A DNA stretch of 64,000 bases from contig CANNFQ010000014.1 of assembly GCA_947503925.1 (NCBI GenBank), positions 50,130-114,129 on the forward strand. Reading direction: 5' to 3'. Below, piece after piece: positions 3,001 to 27,670 of this stretch. Each line of letters opens with the position of its first letter. Position 1 is the first letter of the stretch. Below the pieces are notes generated by a model. That model was not told the origin of the DNA and searched no databases. It worked only from the letters and a program-made list of their open reading frames with translations. Origin of the DNA: an uncultured Paracoccaceae bacterium (GTDB taxonomy: Bacteria > Pseudomonadota > Alphaproteobacteria > Rhodobacterales > Rhodobacteraceae). The position numbers and the translations under genes are program-made.

Positions 3001-5558
3001 CCGCGATTGGCGACAGGCGTGCCGATGGCGATGTCGGTCCGGCCGGTGCGGTGGGCCAGGACTTTTGCAAAGATCGTGGTCAGGGCCGAAAACACGGTCA
3101 CGCCGTTGGCAGCGGCCCAGGTTTTCAACTTCCCCCAATCCGCCTTGTCCAAGGCGCAATGCTGATAGCGCGCCGTCCGGCGTCCAATCGCTGGTTGCGC
3201 AAAAAGTGGAGCAAACCGGTCGCCCCGGTGTTGCGTCAGTTCCACCCGCCAAGCAGCAATCTGATCCTGATGCGCCTGTGATCCAGCAAAGGCCTGCCGC
3301 GTCGCGGCAAAGGTCGGATATCTCGCTGGCGCACCGGTTAAGGCGTCACCCGCCATCAACGTCGATAAATCCTTCATCAGTTGCGTTATGCTGTGGCCGT
3401 CAATCGCGACATGATGAAAGCCAAGATAAAGACGGTGCCGCGCCGCATCCAGCTGGACCAATGCGGCACGTATCATCCGACCCTGCGACAGATCATAAGG
3501 CGTAGCACAGCACGCCTGCGCGGCTTCCTCGGAACAAGGCGACAGGTCGATATCCCAGGGCGAGACCGGTGTCGCGATGACCTGCCCATCCTCTAGCACA
3601 AACGCTGTGCGTAAGCTGGCATGCCGCGCCAGCAGGGACGTCAGCGCAGATTGCAGTGTCGCAGTATTCAAGAGGCCGGCGAGTTCGAAACAGAAAGTTT
3701 CGTTATAAGCGACCGATTCCGGATCAAGCCGCTGCAGAAAGACAAGGCGCGCCTGTTCCTTGGCGGCGGGATAGGGCAGGTCCGGATCGACTGCCACGGT
3801 CTGCGGCGCGTCGACCGGCACCAGCTTTGCTGTAAATGCTGCCAGGCTGGGCGCGTCCAGCAAGTCGCCCACCGCGCCGCGCAATCCATGATCCGCGGCC
3901 AGCCGCCCAACAACACGCATCGCATCCAGCGATTCACCACCTAATTCCAGAAAGCTGGCATCGGGCGGAGGTGTGATTTGCAGCGCCTCACCAACGATCT
4001 GCTGTACCGCCGTCAGACCCGGTGCCTCGGGCGTTGCATCGACTGATCCTGTTGGCAGGTCTGGCCAACCACCAGCCAAAAGCGCGGTGCGATCGATCTT
4101 GCCATTGGCCGTGCGGGGCAGCACAGGTGCTGACGCAAATCGCTGAGGGATCATATAAGGCGGCAAGATACGACCCAGAAATGTCCGCAATGCCGCAACG
4201 GACAGGACATCATCACCCGTGCAGACGATTACGGCCCGCAACTGGTTGCTGTCAGTCGTTTCCGCAACTGCAACAGCGGCATCGGCCACCAGCGGATGCG
4301 ACGATAGCCGGCTTTCCACCTCTGCCAGTTCCACCCGGTGACCACGGATCTTAACCTGCCCATCGGCGCGCCCGACATACTCGATCAGACCATTCGCATC
4401 GCTGCGTACCATGTCACCTGTATCGTATAGGCGTGATGCAGAGATTTCCGGCAACGTTACGAATTTTTCGGCTGTCAGGTCAGGCGCAGCGACATAGCCA
4501 CGCGCCACCCCGGCACCACCCAGAAACAGACGGCCGACCTCGCCGGGGTCGGCCCGGTTGCCATCGGTGCGCAGCACATGCGCCTCGGTTTGATCAACTG
4601 GGCGGCCAATCGGTACGCGGCCCAGTGCGGCAAAGTGTTCGGCACGGTCCGGTTCTACCAGATAGCTTAGCGCAAAGGTCGTGCATTCCGTCGGGCCATA
4701 GCCGTTGACGATCCGTGCGCGGCATCCGACATTGGCCGCGTAAAAACGGGCAACACTGGCAGGGCGCAGGGGTTCCCCACCCACCAGCACATGCCCCGCA
4801 TCAGCCAAGCATTCAGGGTCGGTTTCGACCAGAAGGTTGAACAGCGACGACGTCAGAAACAACGCATCCGGGCGGTCCTGCCGGAACCGGGCGCAGAGCG
4901 CTTCTATGTCGTGCAACTCCTCGTGTGCCACCATGCACAGCGTGGCGCCATTCAGCAACGCGCCAAACACCTCGAAGGTCAGCGCGTCAAAGGCTGGATT
5001 GGCAAGGCAGGACACGCGGTAACCACCCTTCAGAGGCAGATAGGTCGGATCGTGGGCCACCCTCAGGATCCCTGCCTCTGTGATCTCGGACCCCTTTGGC
5101 GCGCCCGTGGAGCCGGAGGTGAAGATGATTGTCGCCAATGGCGGCCTGACCGGGGGCGGACAGTCATCTGGTGACCCAGCCGTCAGCGAATGAACGGAAA
5201 GTTGTTCTGCTGCGATCCCGTCCTCCGGCGCCACGCAGACCACATGGCTGACGGCGGCCTGCGCTATGATGCCGTTGCGCCTTTGGACCGGTGCGGCAGG
5301 ATCCAGCGGTACATAAGTGCATCCCAGCCGCAGGACGGCCAGTATCGCGGCGGGCAAGGAGCGCGTCCGCGGCAATGATAACCCGATGCAATCCCCTGCA
5401 GTAACGCCCGCATCGTTGAGCGTTGCCGCCATGGCCGCAACCGTTTCTGACAGCGCGGCAAAGCTGACCGCCCCAGCTGAGTCCTCAATCGCGATGCGAT
5501 CCGGGTGGCGTTTACAAACCTCGGCAAATACCGAAAACAATGCGGGTGTGTCGCGCAT
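1..5558 (-). CDS. Hybrid NRPS-PKS, A-PCP-C-A-PCP-KS..., 3' end outside window
   Basis: This gene is absent from the ORF track because it has no stop inside the window. It starts ATG (MRDTPALFSVFAEV) one base after the stop of the upstream TE-containing NRPS gene and stays open to base 1. Approximate domains are A1 (residues 1-490; TSGSTGAPKGS, NGYGPTECTT), PCP1 (LGGESLDAMRV near 541), C (HHVAIDG near 714), A2 (1020-1510; YTSGSTGQPKGVA, NEYGPTE), PCP2 (EAGLNSLLLMKL near 1560) and a ketosynthase from about 1600 (DEIAIIGMAVNLPDAP) with catalytic Cys in VQSACSSSLAAL. There is no N-terminal C or docking domain, so it looks like the start of an assembly line. By-eye specificity codes are DAFFLGGTFK (Val/Ile-like) for A1 and DATKVGEVGK (close to Asn codes) for A2. 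The product is probably a dipeptide extended by a polyketide step, which is inference. Confidence 0.93.
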   Translation of the reverse strand, partial: MRDTPALFSVFAEVCKRHPDRIAIEDSAGAVSFAALSETVAAMAATLNDAGVTAGDCIGLSLPRTRSLPAAILAVLRLGCTYVPLDPAAPVQRRNGIIAQAAVSHVVCVAPEDGIAAEQLSVHSLTAGSPDDCPPPVRPPLATIIFTSGSTGAPKGSEITEAGILRVAHDPTYLPLKGGYRVSCLANPAFDALTFEVFGALLNGATLCMVAHEELHDIEALCARFRQDRPDALFLTSSLFNLLVETDPECLADAGHVLVGGEPLRPASVARFYAANVGCRARIVNGYGPTECTTFALSYLVEPDRAEHFAALGRVPIGRPVDQTEAHVLRTDGNRADPGEVGRLFLGGAGVARGYVAAPDLTAEKFVTLPEISASRLYDTGDMVRSDANGLIEYVGRADGQVKIRGHRVELAEVESRLSSHPLVADAAVAVAETTDSNQLRAVIVCTGDDVLSVAALRTFLGRILPPYMIPQRFASAPVLPRTANGKIDRTALLAGGWPDLPTGSVDATPEAPGLTAVQQIVGEALQITPPPDASFLELGGESLDAMRVVGRLAADHGLRGAVGDLLDAPSLAAFTAKLVPVDAPQTVAVDPDLPYPAAKEQARLVFLQRLDPESVAYNETFCFELAGLLNTATLQSALTSLLARHASLRTAFVLEDGQVIATPVSPWDIDLSPCSEEAAQACCATPYDLSQGRMIRAALVQLDAARHRLYLGFHHVAIDGHSITQLMKDLSTLMAGDALTGAPARYPTFAATRQAFAGSQAHQDQIAAWRVELTQHRGDRFAPLFAQPAIGRRTARYQHCALDKADWGKLKTWAAANGVTVFSALTTIFAKVLAHRTGRTDIAIGTPVANRGLGAFDDLVGMCVNTVPIFVDLEPAEEARQAVTAIDRQIKQCFARQDVDFDEIAELAVETGRDGPLFDVMLVLENTHADRLTIPGLEIVPRHHLGSEAKFPLTLFVTGTADGAELLLEFCDEEVTARDASFIIVAFGQAIAALPDHGADTLLALPVMDRSDRQHVKEWADGADNALRHNDPLAALADHAATMPDMTAVADAGQALSYAALDQRTSLIAAGLMRRGVGHNTLVGICMTRCVDLLATVLAVWKAGAAYVPLDPSHPDERLAYLLGDSGVGVVVTDAPVATDVLPAGCVDIGIDTLIAEDGVGVDFTRPEQHDRAYVMYTSGSTGQPKGVAISHGALAHYLAHAVDTYCTGVDNALVSSAFTFDATLTTLLAPLVAGQCIRLLAQDGAEVPALAQILQEATAPLLLKLTPSHLWALQNYLPDRVSAQPHCLVIGGEALDQTVAARFRALFPKARLINEYGPTEAVVGCTYHEYDSDQEAGDVPIGRPIAGARIRLLDSLRVDCPPDVAGEIMIGGAGVGIGYHDRSALTADRFVTLADGHRYYVSGDLALWDRDGVLHYLGRKDEQIKLRGYRIEPAEVETTLRRLPGVVQAAVAVSTAPDGSPVFAGYLVCRDGAFDPAAMTLQIARQLPGHLVPDMLVQIESLPFTANGKLDRAALPHLATTTPEVRDCRDDVDQDLLVSLSAQIAELVGYPVDADTNFFEAGLNSLLLMKLHSTLVRKQGLALELVDFFTYTTPRTLATHLSGQVAETTPRASQQGGIGGDEIAIIGMAVNLPDAPDLATFRDSIMQGKKNFTTVGATTATDGAPGQVGVAATMDGLFDFDPEYFGLSAADAELMDPQQRLILMGAVHALENAGLAPGHQAGLPVGVYVSSSENQYQQALLRAGMAENDLFQMSLLNEKDFVSTRIAYHLNLTGPAMTVQSACSSSLAALHVACQQLRAGECKVALAGGVSADPRLIEGYTYRPGRIYAHDGRCRAFGADASGTVPANGM

Positions 5559-5559
5559 G

Positions 5560-8500
5560 TCAGAGCGCCTCCAACTCTTCAGTGACAATCTGTGCCACGA
5601 AGTTGACCGCAGGGGCCTCCAACATGGTGGCATGGTTGCCGGGGCTGTCATGAAACAGCAGTTCCCCGGTACAGTGGCTTTTCCAGTAATCCTGCCCGTG
5701 CAGACGTTCCGCTGGCGTGGTATCGTCGCAAGCCTGCAACAGCACGCAGCGCCCGGCATTCGGTGCGGGGGCATAATCGCGCTGCAGCATCAGGTGGTGA
5801 TTGTAGATCTGGTGATATCGGGCGATCTGCGGTTCATCGATACCCGGATACATGCCGTTATAGCGCACCAGCTTTTCGCGGAATACCTCAGGCGTCACCG
5901 GCTGAATGCGTTTCAGGATGTCAGGGTCATCAATCCCTTCGGTATCGAGCATGACAACACTGCACCGGTCATGCCCGGCCTCTGCCAACAGCCGCACCAT
6001 CTCGAACCCCAACGTGCCACCGAACGACGCCCCGGTCAGAACCAGCGGCCGATCCAATAGGTGCGTGATCAGCCCGACATTTCGCTTTGCCATCGCGGTC
6101 AAGTCAGGCAGCGTCGGTTCGCCCGCGTTCAGACCCGGCGCCTGAATTCCGAAAACACCGGTATCCGCGCCCAACAGCTTGGACAGCGACAGGTAACAAA
6201 AGGCGGTGCCGCCTGCAGGATGGACGCAAACCACGTTGCGGTCATGCTCCCCGGCTTTCAGGTCGATCAGCTCGGGTCGGGTCAGCCCGCCGGCGGCGGC
6301 CTGTCGCACCAACGCGGCCAGCGACTCGATTGTCGCATTCTGGAACAGGTCGGTGACCACTAGACCCGCGCGAAGCTGGGTGTTGATCGCGGCAATCACC
6401 TTGATCGCCGAAATCGACGTGCCGCCCACATCAAAGAAATTGTCGCCGATCCCTACCGCCTCGTTCAGCAGCGTTTCGCGCCAGATCTTGTAGATCGCCA
6501 GCTCGATCTGGTCGCGGGGGCTGGCGGTATTGACCTGATCAGTCTGGCGCAGTTCGGCCAAAATCTCGATCAGTGCTGGACGGTCAATCTTGCCATTGGG
6601 CGTCAGCGGCAGGTCTTCCAGCAGAATGAACGCCCCGGGCACCATATAAGCGGGCAGGCTGGCCACCAGCGCCCTGCGCAGATTGTCCGTCAGGCTCGTT
6701 GATGCGTCAGCATGTGGTACGACAAAGGCGACCAGCCGGCGTTCGGCGCCACGCTCATCGACATACACAAACGCGCCAGCCACACCCTCAAGGGCCATGA
6801 TCGCCGAGGCGATCTCGGCCGGTTCAACACGAAAACCTCGGATCTTGACCTGCATGTCGATCCGGCCAAGGCAATCAATGGTGCCATCTTCGCGCCATTT
6901 CCCCAGATCGCCGGACCGGTACATGTGGCGGCAACCGCTCACATGATCCGCCACATCCAGAAACGCCTTTTCGGTCAGGTCAGGGCGACCCAGATAGCCC
7001 AAGCCAACGCCATCACCTGCGATGACGATCTCGCCCACCGCGCCACGCGGCAACAGGCGGCCATTGTCGTCCAGAATGAAGATCGCCGTATTACACAAAG
7101 GGCGCCCGATTGGCGCCGGTTCGGGCCCGTTGGGTAGCACGTCATGGCATGAGGCCCAGACCGAACATTCTGTCGGCCCGTAGATATTGACCAGCCCTGC
7201 CGCCACGCCGGTGGGCAGGCAATTCCGCAGCAACCGGTCACCCCCGGTAAAGACCATCCCGATACTGTCGGGCCATTCCATGTCGAGCGAACAGAACAGC
7301 TCCAGCATGCCCGTGGGCAGCCAGAAATGGGTCGGGCGATGTGCGCAGATATGGCGCGACAACAGCGCTGGATCCGCCAGCGCGGCGTCGGGGGTCATCA
7401 CCAGACAGCCACCGCTGACAAGCGTCGGCCAGATCTCCCACAGGATGGAATCAAAGGCCACATTGGCCGATACTGTCATCACGCTGTCTGGCGTCATCGC
7501 ATAGCGGTTCACCTGCGGCAGGGTCATGTTGCGAAGGCCGCGATGCGGCACGATCGCCCCTTTGGGCCGCCCGGTGGAACCCGAGGTGAACACGATATAA
7601 GCTGCGTCGTCCGGTTGCCTGACGGGCAATGTCACAGGTCCAGCGACATCCGGTAGCGGGCGCGAGATATTCAGCACCTGCACCCCGTCGGGCATAACCG
7701 GCAGGGCAACACCATCCCCGGTAAGCACCAGTGCGATGCCGGCATCTTCCAATATTCCGGCAAGCCGCTCTGCCGGGCAATCTGGTGCAATCGGCACAAA
7801 AACGTGCCCTGCCTTCAGAATGCCAAGTTGAGCGATGACAAATGCCCGCGATCGGTCGCTGATTATTGCAATGGCGGCACCCGGCTTTGGCATTTGCTTG
7901 GCCAAGTAATGCGCTAACCGCGTCGCCTGCCCGTCCATGTCGCCATAGCTGATTGTCCCGCAGCGATCGCGGATCGCCTCGGCGGCGGGGCTTGTTGCGG
8001 CCAACTGGCTAAATAAGTCATGGCACAATTCCGCCGGGTCATAGGGGCATATGTCGCCCCGACCCAGTGCCAGAAGCTCGGCCAATTCCGCAGATGATGG
8101 CTGGGCCAGATCGGCTGCAACCGCTGTGGGCGACTGGACAAGTGCGGCAAGCAGCGCGGCAAACTGGTTGCTCAACCGGGTCATCGTCTCACGCGAAAAC
8201 AGCGCCGAAGCCCAACTCCAGTGCAGGCCAATCCGGTCTTCCTGCATCCGCACCGACAATTGCAGATCAACCTTGGCGGTTGCATCGGCCAGTGGTCCAA
8301 GGCTGGCGATTACATCATGCATCATGAAACTGTCTGCCACGAAGTCATCCATCGCGATCATGATCTGGCTCAACGGTGTGTGGCTGATGTTCCGTATCGG
8401 ATTCACCACCTCGACGATACGCTCAAACGCCACATCCTGATGGTCGAAAGCTGTGAAAAGCTGCTGTTGCACCCCTTGTAGCAAGGCATCAAATGGCTGT

Positions 8501-9606
8501 TCAGGATCCAATTGTAATCGCAGTGGCAACACATTGGCCAAAAAACCGACCGTGTTCTCAAATTCGGGCCGGTTACGATTGGCGACCGGTGTCGACAACA
8601 CCAGGTCGGTTTCACCGGAATAGCGCGCTAGCAGCAGGCCGAAGGCCGCGAGCATTAGCGCAAACGGTGTCGTACCCTGCGCACGCGCAAGACCGAGCAG
8701 CGCAGCGGATAGATCCGCATCCAGCGTCATGTCCAACCGCGCCCCGTCATAACTTTGACGGGACGGGCGCGGATAATCCAACGGCATATTATGGGTGATC
8801 GGCGCATTCGACAGGGTGTCTTTCCAATATTGCCGCTGCGCCGCATGGCGGTCGGTCGCTTCCATCCGGTTGTGCCAATCGATATAATCGAGGAACTGCA
8901 CCGGCTTGCCGGGCAGGTCGGGCGCATCACCGGTCACCTCGGCCCGGTAGAGCGCAGCGAGCTCGTGCAGCAAGATCCCGACGGAGGCGCCGTCCAGCAC
9001 CATGTGATGCCCCGCCAGTAACAGGATATGCCGGGTGGCCGAAAGCCTGACCAGATGACCCCGGAAAAGCGGGCCCTTTGCCAAGTCAAATGGCGCAGCG
9101 CAAACCCCGCCAATCAGATACTGCAAGGCCGCGTCATCGTTGTCATACCCGGAGATTTCCAAGGCAATGTTCACGTTGCTGACCTGCTGCATCAGGTTGC
9201 CGTTTGCGACGCGGAAGGTCGTGCGCAGCGCCTCATGGCGACGCACCAGTGTGACAAATGCACGCTGTAGTGCCGTCTGATCCAATGACCCTTCCAGATC
9301 TACCCGCAGTGGGATGGCGTAATGATCACCCCCCGCGCCCAGTTCACTGACCGCCCAGAGCGCCTGCTGCGAAATTGACGCCGCAGCAGAGGTCGGGCGG
9401 GTGGCTTCGCCCCTAACGATAGGGGTCGCAGCGCTAGGTGATCTTAACCGCAGCCATTCAGTTAGCGCCGTCCTATGCATGCGCAACTGTGCCAGTACAT
9501 CATCACTCAGCGGGCCGTTTCGCGGGCGAACGGCGAGCTTGTCATCCTTCAGATAGACATCGATCTGATGTTCGCGCAGCAAACGCTGAATATCTGGTGA
9601 AATCAT
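5560..9606 (-). CDS. NRPS termination module, docking-C-A-PCP-TE
   Basis: The protein is about 1348 aa. The track starts it at 9672, inside the preceding gene. ATG 9606 (MISPDIQRLL) is preferred because GGGAG lies about 7 bases upstream. Approximate domains are a TubC-type N-terminal docking domain (1-50), C (70-500, HHMVLDG), A (530-1020; FTSGSTGRPKGAI, NIYGPTECSV), PCP (DVGGTSISAIKV) and a type I thioesterase (1125-1345) with Ser in GASFGG and a candidate His in GNHATML. The A-domain code read by eye is DSWWFGIVWK. The crowded pocket suggests a small substrate, with low confidence. No epimerase or methyltransferase domain is visible. As the only TE-bearing protein here it should release the peptide of the upstream modules by hydrolysis or cyclisation. 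Confidence 0.93.
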   Translation of the reverse strand: MISPDIQRLLREHQIDVYLKDDKLAVRPRNGPLSDDVLAQLRMHRTALTEWLRLRSPSAATPIVRGEATRPTSAAASISQQALWAVSELGAGGDHYAIPLRVDLEGSLDQTALQRAFVTLVRRHEALRTTFRVANGNLMQQVSNVNIALEISGYDNDDAALQYLIGGVCAAPFDLAKGPLFRGHLVRLSATRHILLLAGHHMVLDGASVGILLHELAALYRAEVTGDAPDLPGKPVQFLDYIDWHNRMEATDRHAAQRQYWKDTLSNAPITHNMPLDYPRPSRQSYDGARLDMTLDADLSAALLGLARAQGTTPFALMLAAFGLLLARYSGETDLVLSTPVANRNRPEFENTVGFLANVLPLRLQLDPEQPFDALLQGVQQQLFTAFDHQDVAFERIVEVVNPIRNISHTPLSQIMIAMDDFVADSFMMHDVIASLGPLADATAKVDLQLSVRMQEDRIGLHWSWASALFSRETMTRLSNQFAALLAALVQSPTAVAADLAQPSSAELAELLALGRGDICPYDPAELCHDLFSQLAATSPAAEAIRDRCGTISYGDMDGQATRLAHYLAKQMPKPGAAIAIISDRSRAFVIAQLGILKAGHVFVPIAPDCPAERLAGILEDAGIALVLTGDGVALPVMPDGVQVLNISRPLPDVAGPVTLPVRQPDDAAYIVFTSGSTGRPKGAIVPHRGLRNMTLPQVNRYAMTPDSVMTVSANVAFDSILWEIWPTLVSGGCLVMTPDAALADPALLSRHICAHRPTHFWLPTGMLELFCSLDMEWPDSIGMVFTGGDRLLRNCLPTGVAAGLVNIYGPTECSVWASCHDVLPNGPEPAPIGRPLCNTAIFILDDNGRLLPRGAVGEIVIAGDGVGLGYLGRPDLTEKAFLDVADHVSGCRHMYRSGDLGKWREDGTIDCLGRIDMQVKIRGFRVEPAEIASAIMALEGVAGAFVYVDERGAERRLVAFVVPHADASTSLTDNLRRALVASLPAYMVPGAFILLEDLPLTPNGKIDRPALIEILAELRQTDQVNTASPRDQIELAIYKIWRETLLNEAVGIGDNFFDVGGTSISAIKVIAAINTQLRAGLVVTDLFQNATIESLAALVRQAAAGGLTRPELIDLKAGEHDRNVVCVHPAGGTAFCYLSLSKLLGADTGVFGIQAPGLNAGEPTLPDLTAMAKRNVGLITHLLDRPLVLTGASFGGTLGFEMVRLLAEAGHDRCSVVMLDTEGIDDPDILKRIQPVTPEVFREKLVRYNGMYPGIDEPQIARYHQIYNHHLMLQRDYAPAPNAGRCVLLQACDDTTPAERLHGQDYWKSHCTGELLFHDSPGNHATMLEAPAVNFVAQIVTEELEAL

Positions 9607-9626
9607 GCCTGTTCTCCCATTCATGC

Positions 9627-12600
9627 TCACAGCAGAATCTCGTCTGAGTCGTCGTCCTGTGGGTCTGGGCACGCGCCCGCCAGCAGTTGCGCAACCCCAG
9701 CAATGGTCGGGGCCATCAAAAGGTTGCGCAGCGGTATAATCGTACCTGTTCGGGCCTCCACCCGACCCAGCATCCGGATCGCCAGCAACGAATGGCCGCC
9801 AAGTTCAAAGAAGCTGGTGAACACATCGATCTGTTCGAGATCAAGCAGATCGGCCCAGATCGCTTCGATCAGTTTTTCTTCGGTGCTTTCAGCGGCGACA
9901 GTGACCTGCGGCGGTTTGGTGGACATCTGCGACAATGCGACCCTGTCTATCTTGCATGCGGGTGTCTTCGGCATCGTTTCCAACCCCGTGATCCGAGCTG
10001 GGACCATGTAGGCGGGTAGATCGGCCGCCAGATCAGCCCGCATCTCGGCGATTTGCTCCGCTTTTGGTACGGGCCGTACAAAGGCGTTCAGTGTGGTGCC
10101 ATCAGTGCTGGCAACCGCCACCGCCTCGGTCACCTCTGGGCGGGCCGCTAGCCGCATTTCGATCTCGCCCAGTTCCACCCGGTGCCCGCGGATCTTGACC
10201 TGAAAATCGGCGCGTCCAAGGATCTGCAACTGCCCGTTATGGGTCCAGCGCGCCAGATCACCGGTATCGTAAAGGCGCTGTCCCGATAGCGGATCGACAG
10301 GAAACCGCGCCGTGGTCAGATCGGGTTGGCCAAGATAGCCCACGGCTAGGTTCTCACCCGATAGAAAAAGGCGGCCTACCACCCCTGGCGGGATCGGGGT
10401 CAAAGACGCATCCAGCACATGAAAACCGTTGCCTGGAAACGCCCTGCCCACCGTAACAGGGGACCCATGCGCCATTTCCGTCGCGCTGACATAGACGGTC
10501 GCCTCCGTAGGGCCATAGTAGTTCCACAGGCGCAGCCCTGGTCCCGCCGACAATAGCCGATCTTTCAAATCCTCTGGCAAAGCATCGCCGCCGCTGTAAA
10601 GCCGTGCCGTCGCCGGGGCCTGCCATCCCGCATCGACCAGCATCTGCCATGTCGCGGGCGTGGCGTGAATGTCGGTCACCTCCAATGCCGCGAGGCTTGC
10701 TATCAGCCGTGGCGGATCGGTAACCGCAGCCTCGCCCGGCAGCGCCACGGTGGCCCCGTTTGCCAGCGCGTGCTGGATGTCGATCACATGAACATCAAAT
10801 GAAATCGCCGTCAGCAACGGGATTACTGATCCAACCTGCAACGGGGTAAGGCGAGCGGCACCGGACAGAAAACTCGACAGGTTGCGATGGGTGATCACCA
10901 CGCCTTTCGGTCGGCCAGTGGTACCTGATGTAAAGATTGCATATGCGGGCAGGTCCGGCGAAAGATCAGGCAGCGCGGCGGTGGTTACAGCGGATCGCGG
11001 CGCCTCCAGATCGATGAAATCGCCGCTCTTCAGTGATGTAGGCGTTGCGGCGTCGCCCAGCACCATCCGGGGAGTGCAATCTTCCATTATCTGGGTCAGC
11101 CGTGACTGCGGCAGCCGTGCATCCAGCGGCACGTAGGCAGCCCCGGCTTTCAGAATGGCGACGATCCCTAGCACCATGGTGAAATCGCGTCCTACCGACA
11201 GGCCGACAAAATCGCCCCGGCCAACACCGGCGGCGATAAGCTCTGCGGCGATAGCGCCGCTAGCATCATCCAGCGTGCGATAGGTCCAGCTCTGGTCCGC
11301 GTTGCGGCAGGCAATGGCATCCGGTGTCGCGGCAACCTGCCGGGCGAACCGCGTTGGAAAGCTGTCATAAGGCGCGATATCCCGCGCCGCCGCGTTCCAC
11401 TCATTCAGCCGTGTCATCATATCGCCCGACGCGACCGGCAAGCAGCCCACCAGCGTGTCCGGGTCCTGCAAAGCCGCCTCCAGAAGCGTTACATAGCTGT
11501 CCGAAAAACCGGCTATAGTTTCGGCATCAAACAGGTTGGCGGCGTAACCGAAGTCCAGCGTCAGGCCCGCCGCATCCGGTTGCGCATGGACTTCCAGTTC
11601 GAAATTTACGGTGTTGCGTTGCACCAGGTGTGGGCGCGCCACGCATCCAGGAATGGTGAGCCGGTCCGCCTCGGGTTCGCCAAGGGTAAACAGGATCTGC
11701 AACAGTGGCGGGAAGGCCTGGTCACGCTGCGCTGACACCGTGTTGATGATCCGGTCGAGTGGCACATCCTGATGCGCCAGATCATTCTTCAGCCCGGCAT
11801 CTGCTTGTTTGACAAAGCGATCAAATCCCAGCTTTGGGTCGATATCCGTCTTCACCGGCAGCGTATTGACAAAAAGGCCGATGATCCTGTCAAAGGCCGG
11901 CTTGTCACGCCCGGATACCGGCGTGCCGATCACAGCGTGATCGCGCCCACTCCAGCGGGCGACAACGACGGCCAGAACCGCATGCAACAAAGAAAACCGG
12001 GTCACGCCCTGCTGACGGCTAAAATCATCCAACCGGGCCAGCGTGGCAGCGTTGATGCGCGCGGTCATGCTCTGCGCGTGATATGGGTCGTTGGGACGAC
12101 GGGGCCGGTCAGCAGGCAGCGCATTTAGCATCTCCACACCTGACAGTCGTTCTTGCCAATAGGCGGACCCGATCGCGTCTTTATCATGCTGCCAACGGGC
12201 GATATCGGCTATCTGGTAAGGCGGCTGCGCCACATCCTTGCCCGCCATCGCTGCCGATAACTCATCTAGGAACAGGTGGTAGGACCAGCCGTCGAACGCG
12301 ATGTGATGAAATACCAGCGACAGGCGCGCACGGTCAGCGCCCCGGGTGATCAGGGTCGCCCGCAGCGGTAACTCCGCTGCCAGATCAAACGGCGCCGCAG
12401 ACAGATCCGCCACATCAGCATCGGCAGCAGCGTCATCATCGGCCGCGATCCGACTGAGGCAGAACGCATCAGCCGCACCCGGCACCTGGACGATATCCTC
12501 GCCTGCGCGCCGGTAGGTGGATCGCAATACTGCATGACGTTGCACAATCGCCCGCAACGCATGTTCCAGCTGGTCCGGGTCAATTGATCCCTCAAGATCA

Positions 12601-12896
12601 AAGCTAAAGGCCATGTTGTAGTGGCTCGCCCCTCTGTCAGCCGCCTGCAGGAAGTACATGCGCTGTTGGCCGGGGGTCAGCGGCGCGGGGCAATCATCCA
12701 GTGTTGGATCACGATCCGGCAAAGTTTGCTGCCGGCCCGCCAGAAATGCGATTAACTCTGCTTTGTTGGCCTTCAGTTGCGCTTTCAGCTCATTCGATAG
12801 CGGCACGCCACGAGCCTGAAACTTCAACGCGTCACCCTCCAGATACAGTGTGACGCCCTGTGCACGGGCTTCCTCGATCAAGGAAATGACGCTCAC
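9627..12896 (-). CDS. NRPS elongation module, docking-C-A-PCP
   Basis: The protein is 1089 aa. The GTG start overlaps the stop of the upstream NRPS gene (GTGA), so translation is probably coupled. Residues 1-55 (LIEEARAQGVTLYLEG...) form a TubC-type docking domain. Then follow a condensation domain (70-480, HHIAFDG), an adenylation domain (505-985; FTSGTTGRPKGVV, NYYGPTEATV) and a PCP (ELGGHSLLAIRML). The C terminus ends in a short acidic tail, DDDSDEILL, of the kind that partners TubC-type docking domains. The specificity code read by eye is DVIHYGYVYK, which matches no code I know, so no substrate is called. It adds the third residue if the line is collinear. Confidence 0.93.
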   Translation of the reverse strand: MSVISLIEEARAQGVTLYLEGDALKFQARGVPLSNELKAQLKANKAELIAFLAGRQQTLPDRDPTLDDCPAPLTPGQQRMYFLQAADRGASHYNMAFSFDLEGSIDPDQLEHALRAIVQRHAVLRSTYRRAGEDIVQVPGAADAFCLSRIAADDDAAADADVADLSAAPFDLAAELPLRATLITRGADRARLSLVFHHIAFDGWSYHLFLDELSAAMAGKDVAQPPYQIADIARWQHDKDAIGSAYWQERLSGVEMLNALPADRPRRPNDPYHAQSMTARINAATLARLDDFSRQQGVTRFSLLHAVLAVVVARWSGRDHAVIGTPVSGRDKPAFDRIIGLFVNTLPVKTDIDPKLGFDRFVKQADAGLKNDLAHQDVPLDRIINTVSAQRDQAFPPLLQILFTLGEPEADRLTIPGCVARPHLVQRNTVNFELEVHAQPDAAGLTLDFGYAANLFDAETIAGFSDSYVTLLEAALQDPDTLVGCLPVASGDMMTRLNEWNAAARDIAPYDSFPTRFARQVAATPDAIACRNADQSWTYRTLDDASGAIAAELIAAGVGRGDFVGLSVGRDFTMVLGIVAILKAGAAYVPLDARLPQSRLTQIMEDCTPRMVLGDAATPTSLKSGDFIDLEAPRSAVTTAALPDLSPDLPAYAIFTSGTTGRPKGVVITHRNLSSFLSGAARLTPLQVGSVIPLLTAISFDVHVIDIQHALANGATVALPGEAAVTDPPRLIASLAALEVTDIHATPATWQMLVDAGWQAPATARLYSGGDALPEDLKDRLLSAGPGLRLWNYYGPTEATVYVSATEMAHGSPVTVGRAFPGNGFHVLDASLTPIPPGVVGRLFLSGENLAVGYLGQPDLTTARFPVDPLSGQRLYDTGDLARWTHNGQLQILGRADFQVKIRGHRVELGEIEMRLAARPEVTEAVAVASTDGTTLNAFVRPVPKAEQIAEMRADLAADLPAYMVPARITGLETMPKTPACKIDRVALSQMSTKPPQVTVAAESTEEKLIEAIWADLLDLEQIDVFTSFFELGGHSLLAIRMLGRVEARTGTIIPLRNLLMAPTIAGVAQLLAGACPDPQDDDSDEILL

Positions 12897-15800
12897 AACT
12901 CGCCCTCTTCCACCACATTCGTCGAAACCGGTTGCGGCGCGGCAAGCCTGACCAGCGTATCGATTAGACGCGCCAGATCCCGCACCGTGTAATTGTCAAA
13001 GAAATCCTCAAGCTTCAGCGCCACACCATATTCCGCCGACAACCGGCTGAGGATCTTGATCGCCAGCAGCGAATGCCCGCCAATAGAAAAGAAACTGTCG
13101 GTGGCTGAAATGTCGCCCCGTTCCAGAAAGGTCGACCAAATCGCGGCCACCTGTATTTCTGTTGCACTTTCGGGGGCAGTTTGACCTGCTGATACCGCCA
13201 CAAGCCCCGGTAAGTCGACCCGATCGACCTTGCCCTGCGCGGTGAGGGAGAACGCATCGCGCACCAGAACCGCATTCGGGCGCATGAAAGGCGGCAGGGC
13301 CTTGCGCAGAGCGCCAGTCAATTGCCGCCCCAACCGCTGCGGCTTCAGCTCACCCGCCGCGATCAGCGCCTGCATCTCGCCCGTGGGAACGACATAGCCC
13401 AGCAACTGCCCGCCCTTCACGGCGGCAGCGGCCTGCGACACGCGCGCGTCAGCCATCAGCAGACGGGTGAGTTCGTTGAGGTTCACTCGGAAGCCCCGGA
13501 TCTTCACCTCGTCATCGCGCCGACCCAAAAACAGCAACTGACCATCCAATGACCAGCGCGCGAAATCGCCCGTCCAGTAATAGCGTTCTGTCGGATCCAA
13601 CCCAAAATGGACGCCCGAGACGAACCGCTCTGCCGTCAGTTCCGTTTGGCCAAGATACCCTTTGGCAACCCCCGCACCACCGATCACCAACTCGCCTTCG
13701 ACCCCGGCAGGGCATAGCCTGCCGACAGCGTCGACGACCAGTGCGGTGACATTCGGAACCGGACGCCCGATGGGTGGCGCGTCCGGATGATCTTCGGTCA
13801 GTTCAAAACAGACCGCATCCACGGTCGTTTCAGTCGGCCCGTACATGTTGAACAGGCGCAAGCCGGGCACCTTTGGCCGGGCGACAGGGCCCAGCCGATC
13901 ACCGCCGGTCAGCAGGGTCCGCAGGCTACCGGGCCAGTTCACAGGATGTCCCTGTGCGGCCTCGAACAGGCCTGTGGACAGGCAGGCATGGGTGATTCCG
14001 TGATCCCGCAGCGTGCTTTCCAATTGGCCCAGATCATTGCGCCGATCATCATCGATGCTGACAACACGGCCGCCGGCCAGCAGCACGGGCCAGACCTCTG
14101 CGATATGCGCGTCAAAAGCGGGATGGGCGATGCTGGCACCAACTGTCATGGGCGACAGGTCGAACAGTGACCGGTGTATGTGGCACAGATTCAGCAGGCT
14201 TGCATGGGTCACTTCCACGCCTTTTGGCAGCCCGGTCGACCCGGAAGTGAACACAATATAAGCGCGGTCAGGGTCGCAGGCAGCGTCTGCATTCCCCGGC
14301 ACCGGTTGCAGATCCAGATCAGATCTGAGGATCAGCACCGGGCATGCCACCTCCAGCAGATAGGCCCGTCGCTCCGCCGGCAATTCGCGGTCAAGCACAA
14401 GCGCCGTGCCACCCGCCATCCAGATCGCCAGATAACCGACGTTCAGCGCATTACCGCGCGGCAAATCCAGCGCGACGCAAGCCCCGGCCTGCAAACCGGC
14501 ATCCGACATGTTTTGCGCCAGCGCGCTGGCCTGCTCGACCAGCGTCTCGTAGGTCAAATCGCCGGTGCCATCGGACAGGGCGATGGCGTCTGGCTGGATT
14601 TCGGCATGAGTTGCAATCTTGGAAACAAGCGGTGCTTCATCTATTTCGAGCCTTGGGCCACAGGCCCACTCCCGCAGAGTCGCGATCTGTTCGGCCGCCA
14701 GAACCGGAGCCTCCGCCACTGGGCGATCAAGGTTGGCGAAACCACCCAGAAACAACTGCCGGAAATTCTCAAGAAACAACTGAATCTCGGCTGCATCATA
14801 GATGTCGGATCGGTATTCCCATAAAAAATGCACTTCATCACCGCCACGGAACCGATCCCGGCGTGGAATGACCAGACAATCGAGGTCGAATTTTGACGTG
14901 GCCGACTCCACCGTCTCATCCTTGGTCCAGGTCAGCCCCTGTGGCGTGTCAGCGGTCAATGGTGTGTCGTGAAAACCCAGCAGCACATTGAAAAACGGGT
15001 TGCTGCCGCTGCGGGTAGGGTTCAACTCTTCCACAAGTTTAGCGAAGGGATAACGCTCGTTAGATTGCGCGTCCTGAACTGACTGCTGCACGGCGGTCAG
15101 ATAGTCGCGCATTGCCTGACCGCCGTCCAATTTCTGACGCAGGACAACGGTGTTGACCATCATTCCCAGCACATCCTGACCGTTGGGCCAGCCGCGGTTG
15201 GCAAAGGCCGATCCGATGGTCAGATCGTCCTGACCGGAATGGCGCGACAGGCACAGAAAGAGGATGGCCGAAGTATATGCAAATGTCGTAATTCCCAGAC
15301 TACGACAGCCCCCCACGATGTTTTCCCATTCGGCGGCAGAAAAGACCTGCCGCTCGGCGGCGCCCTCAAACCCGATCCGGGTGGACTTTTTGCCGAATAA
15401 TGTCACTCCGTCAGGGCAATCCGCCAGTTGGTCGCACCAATAGGCCAGTTGGCGGTCGGCCTCTGACGAGGTCAGAAAATCTGCCTGCCGTTCCGCGAAA
15501 TTCAGATATTGCGGTACGTTCCTTGGGTCATGGGCAAAATCATCATCGACCCGCGCCCGGTAGGACCGCACCAGATCATCGGTAAAGACATTGCCACCCC
15601 AGCCGTCATGAATGATGTGATGTTCCTGATGCAGCAGGACATGCAGATCGTCGGCAAAAGTGACCAGCGCAAACCGGGCCGGCGGACGTTTTGCCAAATC
15701 GGCAATATCGGGCAGTTGCTGTCGAAACGTGGCGGAAAGGACCTCATCGCGCTGCTCTGGCGCGACTGACCGGCGATCCAGCACCGGTAGGGTGAACTGC

Positions 15801-17731
15801 ACCTCGGCCAGAACGCACTGATAGGGTCGACCATCGGTCTCGCCGAAGACTGTTCGATAGATCTCGTGACGGGCGAACACATCATTCAGCGCAGCCTCCA
15901 TCAGAGTGGGGTCAAAGTCGCCGTGAAACCAGATCGAGGCCTCCGCCAGATAGGCCTTACTGGCGGGGTGGCTTTGATGGAGGAACCAGATGGCCTCTTG
16001 CTGCGGGGTTAGCGGATATTGCTGACCCGGCGTTGCGGCGGTGGCGGTGATCGGCGCTTCGCCTTCCACAGCAGCGGCAATCAGAGTACGAAGATGGCCC
16101 AGCGTCGGCTGCGCCTGAAATGCGGCCAGCGGGATCGTGACATGAAATTCCTCAGCCACTGCATGCAACAGGCGCAGCACTGCAATCGAATTGCCACCAC
16201 TGGCAAAAAAGTTATTTGCCTCCTGTGGCGCACGCCCATCCGTCTGCTCTGAAAAGAGCGTTGCCAGACGATCACTGGCAACTTCGTCCTGCGTCAGCAA
16301 GGCCAGCAGTGCCTTCCGGTCGATCTTGTCATTGGCATTGATCGGCAGCATCGGCAACACTATGACATGGGCAGGTACATAGTAGTCAGGCAGGCCAGTC
16401 TTCACGTTGTGAAGAATGACAGTTGCCATCTGACCCGGGTCTGCATCGCTTGCTGCAAAAAGGTAAAGTCGCTTGTCCCCGTTACTGGCTTGTCGCACGA
16501 GTGAACAAACCTGAGTCACCTCCGGCGTCGCGGCGGCAACCCTGTCCAGCTGCGAAAGGTCAACGCGATTGCCCCGCACTTTCAGCTGCGCATCCTTGCG
16601 TCCGGCAAAAATAAGATGGCCACCCGAATCCCGTTGCGCCCAGTCGCCGGTTCGGAACCACCGCACCCCGTCCGTGTCAGTGTGAAAGGCGGCATTGCTG
16701 CGCACCGGATCGTCGTGGTAGCCCGGCGACACCTGATCGCCACCTACCCAGATTTCACCGTAATCGGCATCATGGTCGTTCTCGTCACAGACCCTTAGGG
16801 CGAGGCAATCCAGCACATCGCCAATCGACACTGGCGCATCCGGCGTGATCCTGGTCAGACTGGTGCAGACCGTGCATTCCGAAGGGCCGTATCCATTGAA
16901 TGTGGGATAGCGGCCCGCCCAGTCGCGCAACACCTCTTCCGGACAAACATCGCCCGCGACAACAACCGCCTCCAGCGCATAATCATCGCGCAGCGGCAAG
17001 AGCGACATCAGGGCTGATGGCAGCACCACATGCGTGATCCCGTTGGCTGCGATATACTCGCCAAGTAACCTCGGGTCCTCTCGGTCGTGGTCGGGAACCA
17101 CAAACAGCGTTGCGCCATTGGCCAAAGCAGCGATCCACTCGAATGTGGCGGAATCAAATGCGGGCGCGGCGAAATGCAGGACACGCGACCCTGCCGTTAT
17201 GCCCAGACGCTTTGACACCGCATCGACCACACGCAGCATTGCATTGCGGGCGATCTGTACGCCTTTCGGGTGGCCGGTGGACCCGGACGTATAAAGTTGA
17301 AACTCGATGTCACCCTGGGCGGCGGCAGGTTGGCCCGCATCGGCATCCTGCGACATCGTTTCGAAGACCAGCGTTGCGGCAGCATTGTCGGCCAACGCGG
17401 CACATTTTGTCGCCGAGCCGATCAGCAGACCCCGCCCACCATCGCGCAGCAATGCCGTGTTATGTAATGTCGGATGCGCTGGGTCGAGCGGGATGCAGCA
17501 TCGCCCTGCCATCAGTACCGCACAGAATGCCACCACCATCTGGGTAGAGCGGTTCAGGCAGACATAGACCGGCAAGTCCGGATCATCTGTCGCCGCGTCG
17601 ATGCGTGCCTGCAATGCCGCCGCGGCGTTCCAGAAATCATCATAGCACAGTGCGGTCTGGCCATCGTCGACCGCCAGTGTTTGCATCTTGTCGGATACCT
17701 GTGCCGCGACACGTGCAACTGTCTCAAACAT
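12893..17731 (-). CDS. NRPS loading and first extension modules, A-PCP-C-A-PCP
   Basis: The protein is 1612 aa. The ATG is preceded by GGGAG at good spacing. Approximate domains are A1 (1-495; LYTSGSTGHPKGV near 146, NGYGPSECTV), PCP1 (SGGNSIAVLRLL), C (590-1010, HHIIHDG), A2 (1040-1510; FTSGSTGLPKGVE, NMYGPTETTV) and PCP2 (SIGGHSLLAIKIL). The absence of an N-terminal C domain marks a loading module. The A10 motif of A1 is NANDKIDR rather than NGK, but the catalytic Lys is kept. Codes read by eye are DSFVVAGVCK (vaguely aromatic-like) for A1 and DAACLGMVDK (perhaps polar or charged) for A2, both low confidence. The C terminus ends VVEEGEL, an acidic docking tail for the next protein. Confidence 0.93.
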   Translation of the reverse strand: MFETVARVAAQVSDKMQTLAVDDGQTALCYDDFWNAAAALQARIDAATDDPDLPVYVCLNRSTQMVVAFCAVLMAGRCCIPLDPAHPTLHNTALLRDGGRGLLIGSATKCAALADNAAATLVFETMSQDADAGQPAAAQGDIEFQLYTSGSTGHPKGVQIARNAMLRVVDAVSKRLGITAGSRVLHFAAPAFDSATFEWIAALANGATLFVVPDHDREDPRLLGEYIAANGITHVVLPSALMSLLPLRDDYALEAVVVAGDVCPEEVLRDWAGRYPTFNGYGPSECTVCTSLTRITPDAPVSIGDVLDCLALRVCDENDHDADYGEIWVGGDQVSPGYHDDPVRSNAAFHTDTDGVRWFRTGDWAQRDSGGHLIFAGRKDAQLKVRGNRVDLSQLDRVAAATPEVTQVCSLVRQASNGDKRLYLFAASDADPGQMATVILHNVKTGLPDYYVPAHVIVLPMLPINANDKIDRKALLALLTQDEVASDRLATLFSEQTDGRAPQEANNFFASGGNSIAVLRLLHAVAEEFHVTIPLAAFQAQPTLGHLRTLIAAAVEGEAPITATAATPGQQYPLTPQQEAIWFLHQSHPASKAYLAEASIWFHGDFDPTLMEAALNDVFARHEIYRTVFGETDGRPYQCVLAEVQFTLPVLDRRSVAPEQRDEVLSATFRQQLPDIADLAKRPPARFALVTFADDLHVLLHQEHHIIHDGWGGNVFTDDLVRSYRARVDDDFAHDPRNVPQYLNFAERQADFLTSSEADRQLAYWCDQLADCPDGVTLFGKKSTRIGFEGAAERQVFSAAEWENIVGGCRSLGITTFAYTSAILFLCLSRHSGQDDLTIGSAFANRGWPNGQDVLGMMVNTVVLRQKLDGGQAMRDYLTAVQQSVQDAQSNERYPFAKLVEELNPTRSGSNPFFNVLLGFHDTPLTADTPQGLTWTKDETVESATSKFDLDCLVIPRRDRFRGGDEVHFLWEYRSDIYDAAEIQLFLENFRQLFLGGFANLDRPVAEAPVLAAEQIATLREWACGPRLEIDEAPLVSKIATHAEIQPDAIALSDGTGDLTYETLVEQASALAQNMSDAGLQAGACVALDLPRGNALNVGYLAIWMAGGTALVLDRELPAERRAYLLEVACPVLILRSDLDLQPVPGNADAACDPDRAYIVFTSGSTGLPKGVEVTHASLLNLCHIHRSLFDLSPMTVGASIAHPAFDAHIAEVWPVLLAGGRVVSIDDDRRNDLGQLESTLRDHGITHACLSTGLFEAAQGHPVNWPGSLRTLLTGGDRLGPVARPKVPGLRLFNMYGPTETTVDAVCFELTEDHPDAPPIGRPVPNVTALVVDAVGRLCPAGVEGELVIGGAGVAKGYLGQTELTAERFVSGVHFGLDPTERYYWTGDFARWSLDGQLLFLGRRDDEVKIRGFRVNLNELTRLLMADARVSQAAAAVKGGQLLGYVVPTGEMQALIAAGELKPQRLGRQLTGALRKALPPFMRPNAVLVRDAFSLTAQGKVDRVDLPGLVAVSAGQTAPESATEIQVAAIWSTFLERGDISATDSFFSIGGHSLLAIKILSRLSAEYGVALKLEDFFDNYTVRDLARLIDTLVRLAAPQPVSTNVVEEGEL

Positions 17732-17890: not shown

Positions 17891-19264
17891 CTATTCCCCA
17901 TCAATCCGGATGACGCCAACCGCCGCGCCGTTATGTGCATTGACCACCGCATCGTCAGTCATTGACGCTCGGGCAAACCCGCCTCCATATTGATCGCCGT
18001 TGCAAAAGATGCCCAGTACCGGTGCTGTATCAAACGCCACGAATTCACCCTGCGGCGACATCGCCACCAGTGTCACGGGCACGCCCGTGACACGTTGCTG
18101 AGCGACGTAGGCGGTTTCGCCCGATATTGCGGCATTCAGCAGGTCTGTCCAGGCCGCATCGGACATGGACCAGCCGCAATGCACATCCTGCCCACCATAG
18201 CCGTTTGCGGCCTTGAGTACGGTTTGCTGGCGCTGGCGCCGCGCCACTGCGTCACGTGTTTGGGACGAGACAGGCATGGTCCAGGGCAAAAGGCCATCGA
18301 CAATTGCCGCGTCGGAGGTAGGTAACGCACCTTCGGCGCTGGCCTGTGACGCGAGGGCGAGCGTCGCCTTGTTCATCAGCAAATCGATCTGCACCGGGTT
18401 GACCGAGACGAAATCACCAGCAGACACGGCATCAAGATAGGCGACATAGCGGGATGGGTGCCGCAGGCACTCGCGCAGTGTGAACAGCTCGAAAACAGCA
18501 GACGGGGTGCTGTCACCGGTCAGTAAGGCGCTTGCCGGGACAATCGGCACATCCAGACCCGTCAGATGGCGCAGCGACCGGGCCGCGATCTGTGCGGAGA
18601 TCGGGCTGCGGGCCAGTTCGTCGTCATCGTCGCAGACAACCAAGCCGGACCCCAGTTTGGGGGGCAGGCGTCGGGCCAGCGTTTCGAATGGTGCAGGATG
18701 CGGTGGTACAGTCAGGCCATCGGGCGCCGCGCGGTCATAAACTTGCTGCATCTGGCGGTCATCCTGCCCAGCGGTCGCCCCACCAACGTTCAGCTCAAGC
18801 ACCCTCCAGCCCTGCGGCGTTGCAATGACGTCCCAGCGAGCAAACGGGTTTGTCGCTGGCAGTCCAGTCCGTTCCAGCACATCCGCTGCCGCGGCATGAT
18901 AACCCAACTGACGCAATAGGCCGGTGCTGTCCCGGTCCCAGTATCTGCCAAGGACATCAATCATAATCTGCCCCAGCCGGTCCAGCCTTGCAGTCTGCTT
19001 GGCCATGACGGTCTGTGGCACCGTCACCGGTGACAACAACACATGCTCATCGGGGCCGATCAGATTATCTTTCAGACCGGCGTTGCGCAGGTCTTCGGCG
19101 ACTTCATCCGCCTCCGCTTCTTCCATGAAGTAATCGGTCCAGCGAGTTTGCAGTTTATCCAGCACGACGATTTGGTCATCCAGTTCGGGAGGTGAGTTGA
19201 CAGGATTTATGACTAATGAACTTCCGGTTGTGCAAGTGGCTTTTTCGAATGAATTCGGCGGCAA
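17891..19264 (-). CDS. Circularly permuted ATP-grasp-like protein next to NRPS
   Basis: The protein is 457 aa with the track's TTG start. The segment VLKAANGYGGQDV resembles the nucleotide-binding VLKPxDxYGGxGV motif of circularly permuted ATP-grasp proteins (glutathionylspermidine-synthase-like fold), and LELNVGGATAGQ and NGDQYGGGFAR fit metal/ATP-site regions. Such enzymes usually join a carboxylate to an amine through an acyl phosphate. It reads in the same direction as the NRPS genes, 159 bases ahead of them, so a peptide-bond or tailoring role is plausible but unproven. The start is uncertain: no good ribosome site precedes the TTG, and the first 30 or so residues look unlike protein-coding neighbours. 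Later GTG or ATG codons (before MEEAEADEV) are alternatives. Confidence 0.72.
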   Translation of the reverse strand: MPPNSFEKATCTTGSSLVINPVNSPPELDDQIVVLDKLQTRWTDYFMEEAEADEVAEDLRNAGLKDNLIGPDEHVLLSPVTVPQTVMAKQTARLDRLGQIMIDVLGRYWDRDSTGLLRQLGYHAAAADVLERTGLPATNPFARWDVIATPQGWRVLELNVGGATAGQDDRQMQQVYDRAAPDGLTVPPHPAPFETLARRLPPKLGSGLVVCDDDDELARSPISAQIAARSLRHLTGLDVPIVPASALLTGDSTPSAVFELFTLRECLRHPSRYVAYLDAVSAGDFVSVNPVQIDLLMNKATLALASQASAEGALPTSDAAIVDGLLPWTMPVSSQTRDAVARRQRQQTVLKAANGYGGQDVHCGWSMSDAAWTDLLNAAISGETAYVAQQRVTGVPVTLVAMSPQGEFVAFDTAPVLGIFCNGDQYGGGFARASMTDDAVVNAHNGAAVGVIRIDGE

Positions 19265-21831: not shown

Positions 21832-21843
21832 GTATCATGTCCT

Positions 21844-23010: not shown

Positions 23011-23021
23011 AAAAACGGATT

Positions 23022-23052
23022 AACTCAATTGAATTGAATTATCAATCGAGTT
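23022..23052. promoter_or_regulatory. Inverted repeat, candidate ROK operator
   Basis: AACTCAATTG and CAATCGAGTT, separated by 11 bases, form a 9/10 inverted repeat in the divergent promoter between the ROK gene and the solute-binding-protein gene. The AT-rich centre contains TTGAATTGAATTATCAA. NagC/XylR-type regulators bind such AT-rich symmetric sites. The assignment rests on position and symmetry only. Confidence 0.5.
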
Positions 23053-23069
23053 GCGTTAACCCTTAACGC
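23053..23069. promoter_or_regulatory. 17-bp perfect palindrome in ABC operon promoter
   Basis: GCGTTAA-CCC-TTAACGC is a perfect inverted repeat 45 bases before the start codon of the solute-binding protein and directly next to the other repeat. It may be a second operator, possibly for another regulator type (LacI-like symmetry). No regulator other than the ROK protein is encoded nearby. Confidence 0.5.
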
Positions 23070-23113
23070 ATAAGCCCGAAAACGGGCCACCACGCCACCA
23101 TGGGAGAATGACG

Positions 23114-24373: not shown

Positions 24374-24380
24374 ATCACGA

Positions 24381-24417
24381 CCCGCCGTCCCGGATCTCCC
24401 GCCGGGGCGGCTTTTTC
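24381..24417 (+). terminator. Hairpin with T-run between binding protein and permeases
   Basis: CCGCC-gt-c-CCGG, loop, CCGG-GGCGG followed by CTTTTTCTTC lies right after the binding-protein stop and before the first permease. Such intra-operon hairpins commonly terminate part of the transcripts, so that the binding protein is made in excess over the membrane subunits. Confidence 0.75.
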
Positions 24418-24434
24418 TTCGTCAAGGGCGTGTG

Positions 24435-25322: not shown

Positions 25323-25323
25323 G

Positions 25324-27668: not shown

Positions 27669-27670
27669 TC

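What the first reader, a model, noticed from the sequence alone, without database searches (positions are those of the whole stretch)
5560..17731. Complete four-module tetrapeptide NRPS line with unassigned product
The three genes read A-PCP / C-A-PCP / C-A-PCP / C-A-PCP-TE in transcription order, with a start module lacking C and a terminal TE, which should give a tetrapeptide. No epimerase or methyltransferase domain is seen, and a loading module without acyl-starter C domain argues against a lipopeptide. I cannot match the architecture to a known roseobacter product.
Basis: partly seen in the sequence, partly recalled or inferred. Interest (0 to 1): 0.7.

Follow-up and report, generated by a model that had tools for sequence, protein, structure and literature searches.

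The report
Detoxin-like depsipeptide cluster with altered core
The four-module peptide synthetase is only half of a two-part assembly line that runs off the window edge; by gene order and phylogeny it belongs with the bacterial 'antibiotic antidote' compounds (detoxins, pseudovibriamides), but its core reads asparagine where all relatives checked read proline, and the enzymes that modify that proline are missing.

Summary
The three NRPS genes and their domain order are real, intact and conserved in one congener, but the line is not complete. A fourth, immediately adjacent gene (nrpD, from 5558 across the window's left edge) encodes A-PCP-C-A-PCP-KS-KR-PCP-TE without an AT, followed by methyltransferase, MFS exporter and PPTase genes; an ATP-grasp-like ligase gene lies upstream of nrpA. 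The same eight genes in the same order occur in 1 of 56 congeners, with unrelated flanks. This is the layout of detoxin/rimosamide-like (DRL) clusters, including pseudovibriamide, chitinimide and pseudotetraivprolide: nrpABC ends in the esterifying TE and nrpD is the signature AT-less hybrid. KS and TE trees group it with other DRL-type loci. It is a clear variant: nrpD's second A domain reads Asn (DATKVGEVGK) where all five other DRL-type loci outside the genus read Pro, and the TauD dioxygenase reported in all DRL clusters is not detected in either genome. Predicted product: a (probably ureido-linked) tetrapeptide esterified to a Val/Ile-Asn-(beta-hydroxy acid). Chemistry is inferred from relatives; activity unknown. 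New variant of a known kind.

The parts
17891..19264 (-). orf1: probable ATP-grasp amide ligase, first gene of the cassette (ORF from a TTG; true start probably about 19213)
   Evidence: Conserved in cassette at 65%; weak circularly permuted ATP-grasp hits in homologues; six-sequence model matches ligase Cp1B 9cjn and glutathione synthetases.
12893..17731 (-). nrpA: A-PCP-C-A-PCP, C-less start module; A codes DSFVVAGVCK (aromatic-like) and DAACLGMVDK (unassigned)
15602..15625 (-). EHHIIHDG motif of the nrpA C domain, probable ureido-forming (Cu) C domain
   Evidence: Same EHHxxHDG pattern at the same place only in G1202 and G1245; Cu domain named for the ppp line; motif-function link recalled.
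9627..12896 (-). nrpB: TubC-C-A-PCP; A code DVIHYGYVYK (unassigned)
5560..9672 (-). nrpC: TubC-C-A-PCP-TE; A code DSWWFGIVWK (unassigned)
5611..6237 (-). TE of nrpC, probable esterifying thioesterase (HPAGGTAFCY, GASFG)
   Evidence: Groups with line-1 TEs of all DRL-type loci.
1..5558 (-). nrpD, in-window part of a 2917-aa A-PCP-C-A-PCP-KS-KR-PCP-TE hybrid without AT; continues to C14:46934, 3195 bases left of the window
   Evidence: homologues of the same layout.
1020..2438 (-). Second A domain of nrpD, Asn-type code DATKVGEVGK in place of the Pro code of relatives

Best explanation
An eight-gene biosynthetic cassette of the detoxin/rimosamide-like (DRL) type, closest in layout to the pseudovibriamide and chitinimide clusters but with a four-module first line. 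nrpABC assemble four residues; the first two are probably joined through a urea by the EHHxxHDG C domain. nrpD makes Val/Ile-Asn, its KS adds a malonyl unit loaded in trans, most likely by FabD, and its KR reduces the ketone to a hydroxyl. The nrpC TE then passes the tetrapeptidyl chain onto that hydroxyl to give a depsipeptide, and the nrpD TE releases the acid. The methyltransferase and the ATP-grasp ligase decorate the product (for example amide formation on a free carboxylate), and the MFS protein exports it. Shown here: gene content, order, domains, intact motifs, conservation, phylogeny, Asn-type code, no AT in nrpD, no match to the DRL TauD in the genome. Inferred: every chemical step, from characterised relatives.
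For: Eight genes in conserved order with unrelated flanks in a second species. nrpD has the DRL signature layout without AT, the same in two distant alphaproteobacteria and in Streptomyces and Serratia loci. In 367 Alphaproteobacteria the best KS-linker-KR matches outside the genus are G1202 and G1245, both two-line clusters. KSs of all seven DRL-type loci form one clade, 100/100, and line-1 and line-2 TEs form two separate groups with one member of each per locus. The first A code of nrpD is DAFFLGxTFK in all DRL-type loci. The only ATs found in the genome are FabD and the cis-AT of another PKS; FabD loads PipC-ACP in vitro (PMC12828459). TE-catalysed ester formation is demonstrated for chitinimide and supported for pseudotetraivprolide and pseudovibriamide.
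Against: The TauD dioxygenase said to occur in all DRL clusters (PMC12828459) is not detected in either genome, and no GSCFA/PipDFG-like gene was seen in the cassette. The second A domain of nrpD is Asn-type, not Pro. The nrpD KR has Ser for the usual Asn and, in this genome only, Arg for the catalytic Lys, so the hydroxyl that the ester needs is not assured. No line-1 A code was found in the papers held.
Confidence: 0.78

Rival explanations
1. Two independent products from one operon: nrpABC releases a free ureido-tetrapeptide and nrpD a separate Val/Ile-Asn-C2 acid, each by hydrolysis at its own TE.
For: Each line has its own C-less start and its own TE; Pseudovibrio accumulates both free halves beside the ester.
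Against: The two lines stay together across distant loci and the line-1 TE groups with those of clusters whose TE makes the ester.
Confidence: 0.12
2. One longer linear chain: the nrpC TE hands the tetrapeptide to the amine of the first nrpD residue, giving a hexapeptide extended by a ketide.
For: nrpD begins with A-PCP carrying a free amine and lies directly downstream.
Against: No C domain joins nrpC to nrpD, and relatives form an ester with the hydroxyl of the second product.
Confidence: 0.05
3. One reading: a stand-alone, complete tetrapeptide line, with nrpD an unrelated neighbour.
For: The three genes do form a start-to-TE line.
Against: One-base gap to nrpD, conserved eight-gene cassette with unrelated flanks, and the same nrpC-nrpD pair in five other DRL-type loci.
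Confidence: 0.03
4. A nonfunctional or degenerating cluster, with the KR substitutions and missing tailoring genes as signs of decay.
For: KR Asn-to-Ser and Lys-to-Arg; no TauD or GSCFA.
Against: Seven or more kb-long open frames without a break, all other active-site motifs intact in two species at 59-83% identity.
Confidence: 0.02

Closest known systems
Pseudovibriamide (ppp) cluster, Pseudovibrio brasiliensis Ab134
   Same: pppABC ending in a TE plus hybrid pppD with its own TE, a ureido-forming C domain, a PPTase gene and transporter genes; alphaproteobacterial (PMC11796379, PMC12911931).
   Different: Seven modules in line 1 with heterocyclisation and oxidation, Pro in PppD, PppK hydroxylase and PppHIJ; here four modules, Asn, none of those seen, and methyltransferase plus ATP-grasp instead.
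Pseudotetraivprolide (pip) cluster, Pseudomonas entomophila
   Same: Tetrapeptide line plus AT-less NRPS/PKS hybrid PipC; TE ester formation; FabD as trans-AT (PMC12828459).
   Different: Two NRPS genes rather than three, proline core, PipE dioxygenase and PipDFG acetylation complex; none found here.
Detoxin / rimosamide / chitinimide clusters
   Same: Hybrid NRPS/PKS gene as signature (DetG/RmoI/ChmD); chitinimides also have a urea (PMC8302735).
   Different: Described with a tauD-like gene and a proline-derived core; line 1 ranges from short peptides to eight modules.
Thalassospiramide and didemnin lines; barnesin A
   Same: NRPS-PKS hybrids that appear to use an acyltransferase from primary metabolism (PMC5577590, PMC13096860).
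   Different: Not two-line, two-TE ester systems; N-terminus acylated.

Membership tests
Detoxin/rimosamide-like (DRL) clusters | Signature NRPS/PKS hybrid A-PCP-C-A-PCP-KS-KR-PCP-TE lacking an AT | tested here: met
   Pfam; linker without AT; KS in the DRL clade 100/100.
Detoxin/rimosamide-like (DRL) clusters | Upstream NRPS line ending in C-A-PCP-TE, of the TE group that makes the ester | tested here: met
   Layout and TE grouping met; the ester chemistry itself was not testable.
Detoxin/rimosamide-like (DRL) clusters | First hybrid A domain for Val/Ile/Leu | tested here: met
   DAFFLGGTFK, the same pattern as in all other DRL-type loci.
Detoxin/rimosamide-like (DRL) clusters | Proline-activating second A domain in the hybrid | tested here: not met
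   DATKVGEVGK (Asn) here and in the congener; Pro-type DVQ codes in G1202, G1245, Serratia and two Streptomyces loci.
Detoxin/rimosamide-like (DRL) clusters | TauD-like dioxygenase (PipE/PppK/ChmJ), stated to be in all DRL clusters | tested here: not met
   No match at E 1e-8 in G000 or G049 with the G1202 TauD as query, which matches at 64% a gene near the G1245 cluster.
Detoxin/rimosamide-like (DRL) clusters | Antidote activity against blasticidin S | not testable with these tools
   Needs the compound.
Pseudovibriamide (ppp) type | C-less start module followed by a ureido-forming C domain | tested here: inconclusive
   EHHxxHDG present in the right position, as in G1202 and G1245; the motif-function link is recalled from memory, not read here.
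trans-AT PKS module | No cis AT in the module or its homologues, and a stand-alone AT available | tested here: met
   No AT found in nrpD or in its G1202 and G1245 homologues; FabD is the only stand-alone AT found in G000.
ATP-grasp ligase (orf1) | ATP-grasp fold and nucleotide-site residues | tested here: inconclusive
   Fold match to Cp1B and glutathione synthetases with a medium-confidence model; sequence hits below cut-off; invariant E140, N142, K334 and a mostly conserved glycine-rich loop.

The most novel reading that the evidence does not exclude
A DRL lineage that has replaced the proline-derived core with an asparagine-derived one, lacks the hydroxylation/acylation machinery that acts on the proline, and has recruited a methyltransferase and an ATP-grasp amide ligase, giving a core chemotype and possibly a target (an antibiotic other than blasticidin S) not seen in this class.
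Probability: 0.5. Interest if true: 0.66.

Novelty: new variant of a known kind. Interest (0 to 1): 0.55.

Why it matters
DRL compounds are natural antibiotic antidotes. In the sources read, all known clusters are said to carry the dioxygenase gene, and the characterised products have a proline-derived core. A conserved, intact member with an asparagine-type core and no dioxygenase is a natural experiment on which part of the molecule carries the antidote effect and which antibiotic is countered. It also extends this class into the roseobacter family, with an ATP-grasp ligase beside an NRPS, and gives concrete, testable predictions of product composition.

Tried and rejected
Siderophore or lipopeptide readings: no receptor gene in the cassette and no starter C domain. 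AF2 of orf1 from two sequences was useless (pLDDT 33); it needed four distant homologues. orf1 as a general DRL joining enzyme: rejected, because no homologue was found in G1202 or G1245. KS similarity to colibactin-type and AT-less PKS structures is general to hybrid KSs and was superseded by the tree. An orf1 homologue inside another NRPS cluster (G966) is co-occurrence only; that cluster has a different, C-first layout. Line-1 specificity codes searched in papers: no match. Pfam search of the KS-KR linker found no AT and no docking-domain model. Two searches with full-length nrpD failed on the server and were replaced by the KS-KR part. The bulbiferamide and first pseudovibriamide papers are not held.

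Full report
Observation. The three minus-strand NRPS genes are present as described and are intact. Gene 1 (17731-12893) is A-PCP-C-A-PCP, gene 2 (12896-9627) is TubC-C-A-PCP and gene 3 (9672-5560) is TubC-C-A-PCP-TE; the TubC domain of gene 3 scores just under the Pfam cut-off. All core motifs are present. The TubC docking domains at the starts of genes 2 and 3 support the order A to B to C.

The line is not the whole system. The window is C14:50130-114129 of a 36-contig, 4.75 Mb genome. One base after the stop codon of gene 3 a fourth gene, nrpD, starts at 5558 and runs off the window to C14:46934. It encodes A-PCP-C-A-PCP-KS-KR-PCP-TE with no AT between KS and KR. Downstream follow a SAM methyltransferase, an MFS transporter and an Sfp-type PPTase, then what look like serC and serA.

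Cluster limits. In a congener (G049, matching contig CANMQO010000008.1, 'uncultured Rhodobacteraceae bacterium') the genes orf1, nrpA, nrpB, nrpC, nrpD, MT, MFS and PPTase occur in the same order at 65, 75, 70, 77, 68, 83, 79 and 59% identity, while the flanks on both sides are unrelated. The cassette is therefore about C14:43763-69393, window -6366 to 19264. It is rare: 1 of 56 other congeneric genomes, none at E 1e-200 in a sample of 396 other genomes of the family; in a pattern-seeded scan of 85,462 species the next match to nrpB is 36% identical. That scan is not exhaustive.

Finding the family. A class-wide search with nrpC gave two full-length matches, G1202 and G1245 (38 and 36%). Both have the same two-line organisation: a C-less start module, further NRPS genes, a TubC-C-A-PCP-TE gene, then an nrpD-type hybrid, and a related MFS gene. 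Their first lines have seven modules, in G1202 with a C-terminal nitroreductase-type oxidase domain. Independently, the best class-wide KS-linker-KR matches outside the genus are these same two. The literature on FabD-dependent hybrids led to the detoxin/rimosamide-like (DRL) family, whose members pseudotetraivprolide, pseudovibriamide and chitinimide have this layout. A plasmid search then added DRL-type loci: Streptomyces NBC_01455, with GSCFA and TauD genes next to it, S. mirabilis and Serratia proteamaculans. They are called DRL-type here from layout and neighbours, not from products.

Trees. KS domains of this genome, the congener, G1202, G1245, Serratia and two Streptomyces loci form one clade (100/100) apart from ten other KSs, including this genome's second PKS. 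The line-1 TEs (HPAGGTAFCY signature) and the line-2 TEs form two separate groups with one member of each per locus. The program warns of long branches, so branching inside the clade should not be relied on.

How it probably works. In studied relatives the line-1 TE accepts the hydroxyl of the hybrid's product and makes an ester (PMC12828459, PMC12911931), and FabD supplies the malonyl unit (PMC12828459). Here the only AT domains detected in the genome are FabD and the cis-AT of an unrelated PKS on C18. The first C domain of nrpA has EHHIIHDG; G1202 and G1245 have EHHLVHDG and EHHFVHDG in the same place, and no other C domain compared has this pattern. The ppp line has a ureido-forming C domain; the link between that motif and urea formation is recalled, not read. 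Predicted product: a ureido-tetrapeptide esterified to a Val/Ile-Asn-derived beta-hydroxy acid, with a methyl group and perhaps an added amide.

What differs. The second A domain of nrpD reads DATKVGEVGK in both species, a code predicted as Asn in the zeamine synthetase (PMC3547906), while G1202, G1245, Serratia and both Streptomyces loci carry Pro-type DVQ codes (the Pro reading of DVQ codes is from general knowledge and fits the reported Pro code of PppD). The TauD dioxygenase present beside G1202 and near the G1245 cluster has no match in G000 or G049. Hydroxylation and acylation in relatives act on the proline, so loss of the proline and absence of these genes fit together. The Serratia locus keeps a Pro-type code but shows no annotated TauD or GSCFA gene within the 15 kb flanks read, so absence of the dioxygenase alone is not unique. 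This cassette instead has a methyltransferase and orf1. orf1 has no Pfam hit above cut-off, but a six-sequence model (pLDDT 61) matches the ATP-grasp ligase Cp1B, which makes pseudodipeptides in E-64 biosynthesis, and glutathione synthetases. A distant orf1 homologue lies between NRPS genes in an unrelated cluster of G966.

Weak points. The nrpD KR has Ser for the usual Asn in both species and Arg for Lys in this genome; if it is inactive the ester model fails. Line-1 substrates are unassigned except for an aromatic-like first code. No MIBiG or antiSMASH comparison was possible. The antidote activity of relatives cannot be assumed, since the core differs.

Verdict.

Noticed in passing
L011:3237-15989 (C18 of the same genome): A second, unrelated NRPS-PKS cluster: a cis-AT KS-AT-KR PKS with TE, a glycosyltransferase, a formyltransferase/A-domain protein with a luciferase-like monooxygenase inserted in the A domain, and its own PPTase. 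Its KS is 98% identical in congener G050, and related KSs occur in two other family genomes.
   Followed up: partly
L055:8158-9579 (G966:C1): A distant orf1 (ATP-grasp-like) homologue sits between large NRPS genes, some with TubC-like starts, in a different proteobacterium, so this ligase family may be a recurring NRPS tailoring partner.
   Followed up: partly
L090:10802-23925 (Serratia proteamaculans conjugative plasmid NZ_MT039190.1): A two-gene DRL-type NRPS plus NRPS-PKS pair with oxidoreductase genes upstream but no annotated TauD or GSCFA gene within 15 kb: another reduced variant, on a conjugative plasmid.
   Followed up: partly
window 19492-29583: Next to the cassette: a 779-aa protein with a PIG-L deacetylase domain and a long C-terminal region, a ROK regulator, a sugar ABC transporter, a lyase of the argininosuccinate-lyase type and a PfkB kinase; looks like a catabolic island, not found beside the congener's cluster.
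   Followed up: no
window 1-22000 versus the rest: G+C is 59-62% over the cassette side and mostly 54-59% over the rest of the window, in keeping with a separately acquired cassette, but not tested further.
   Followed up: no
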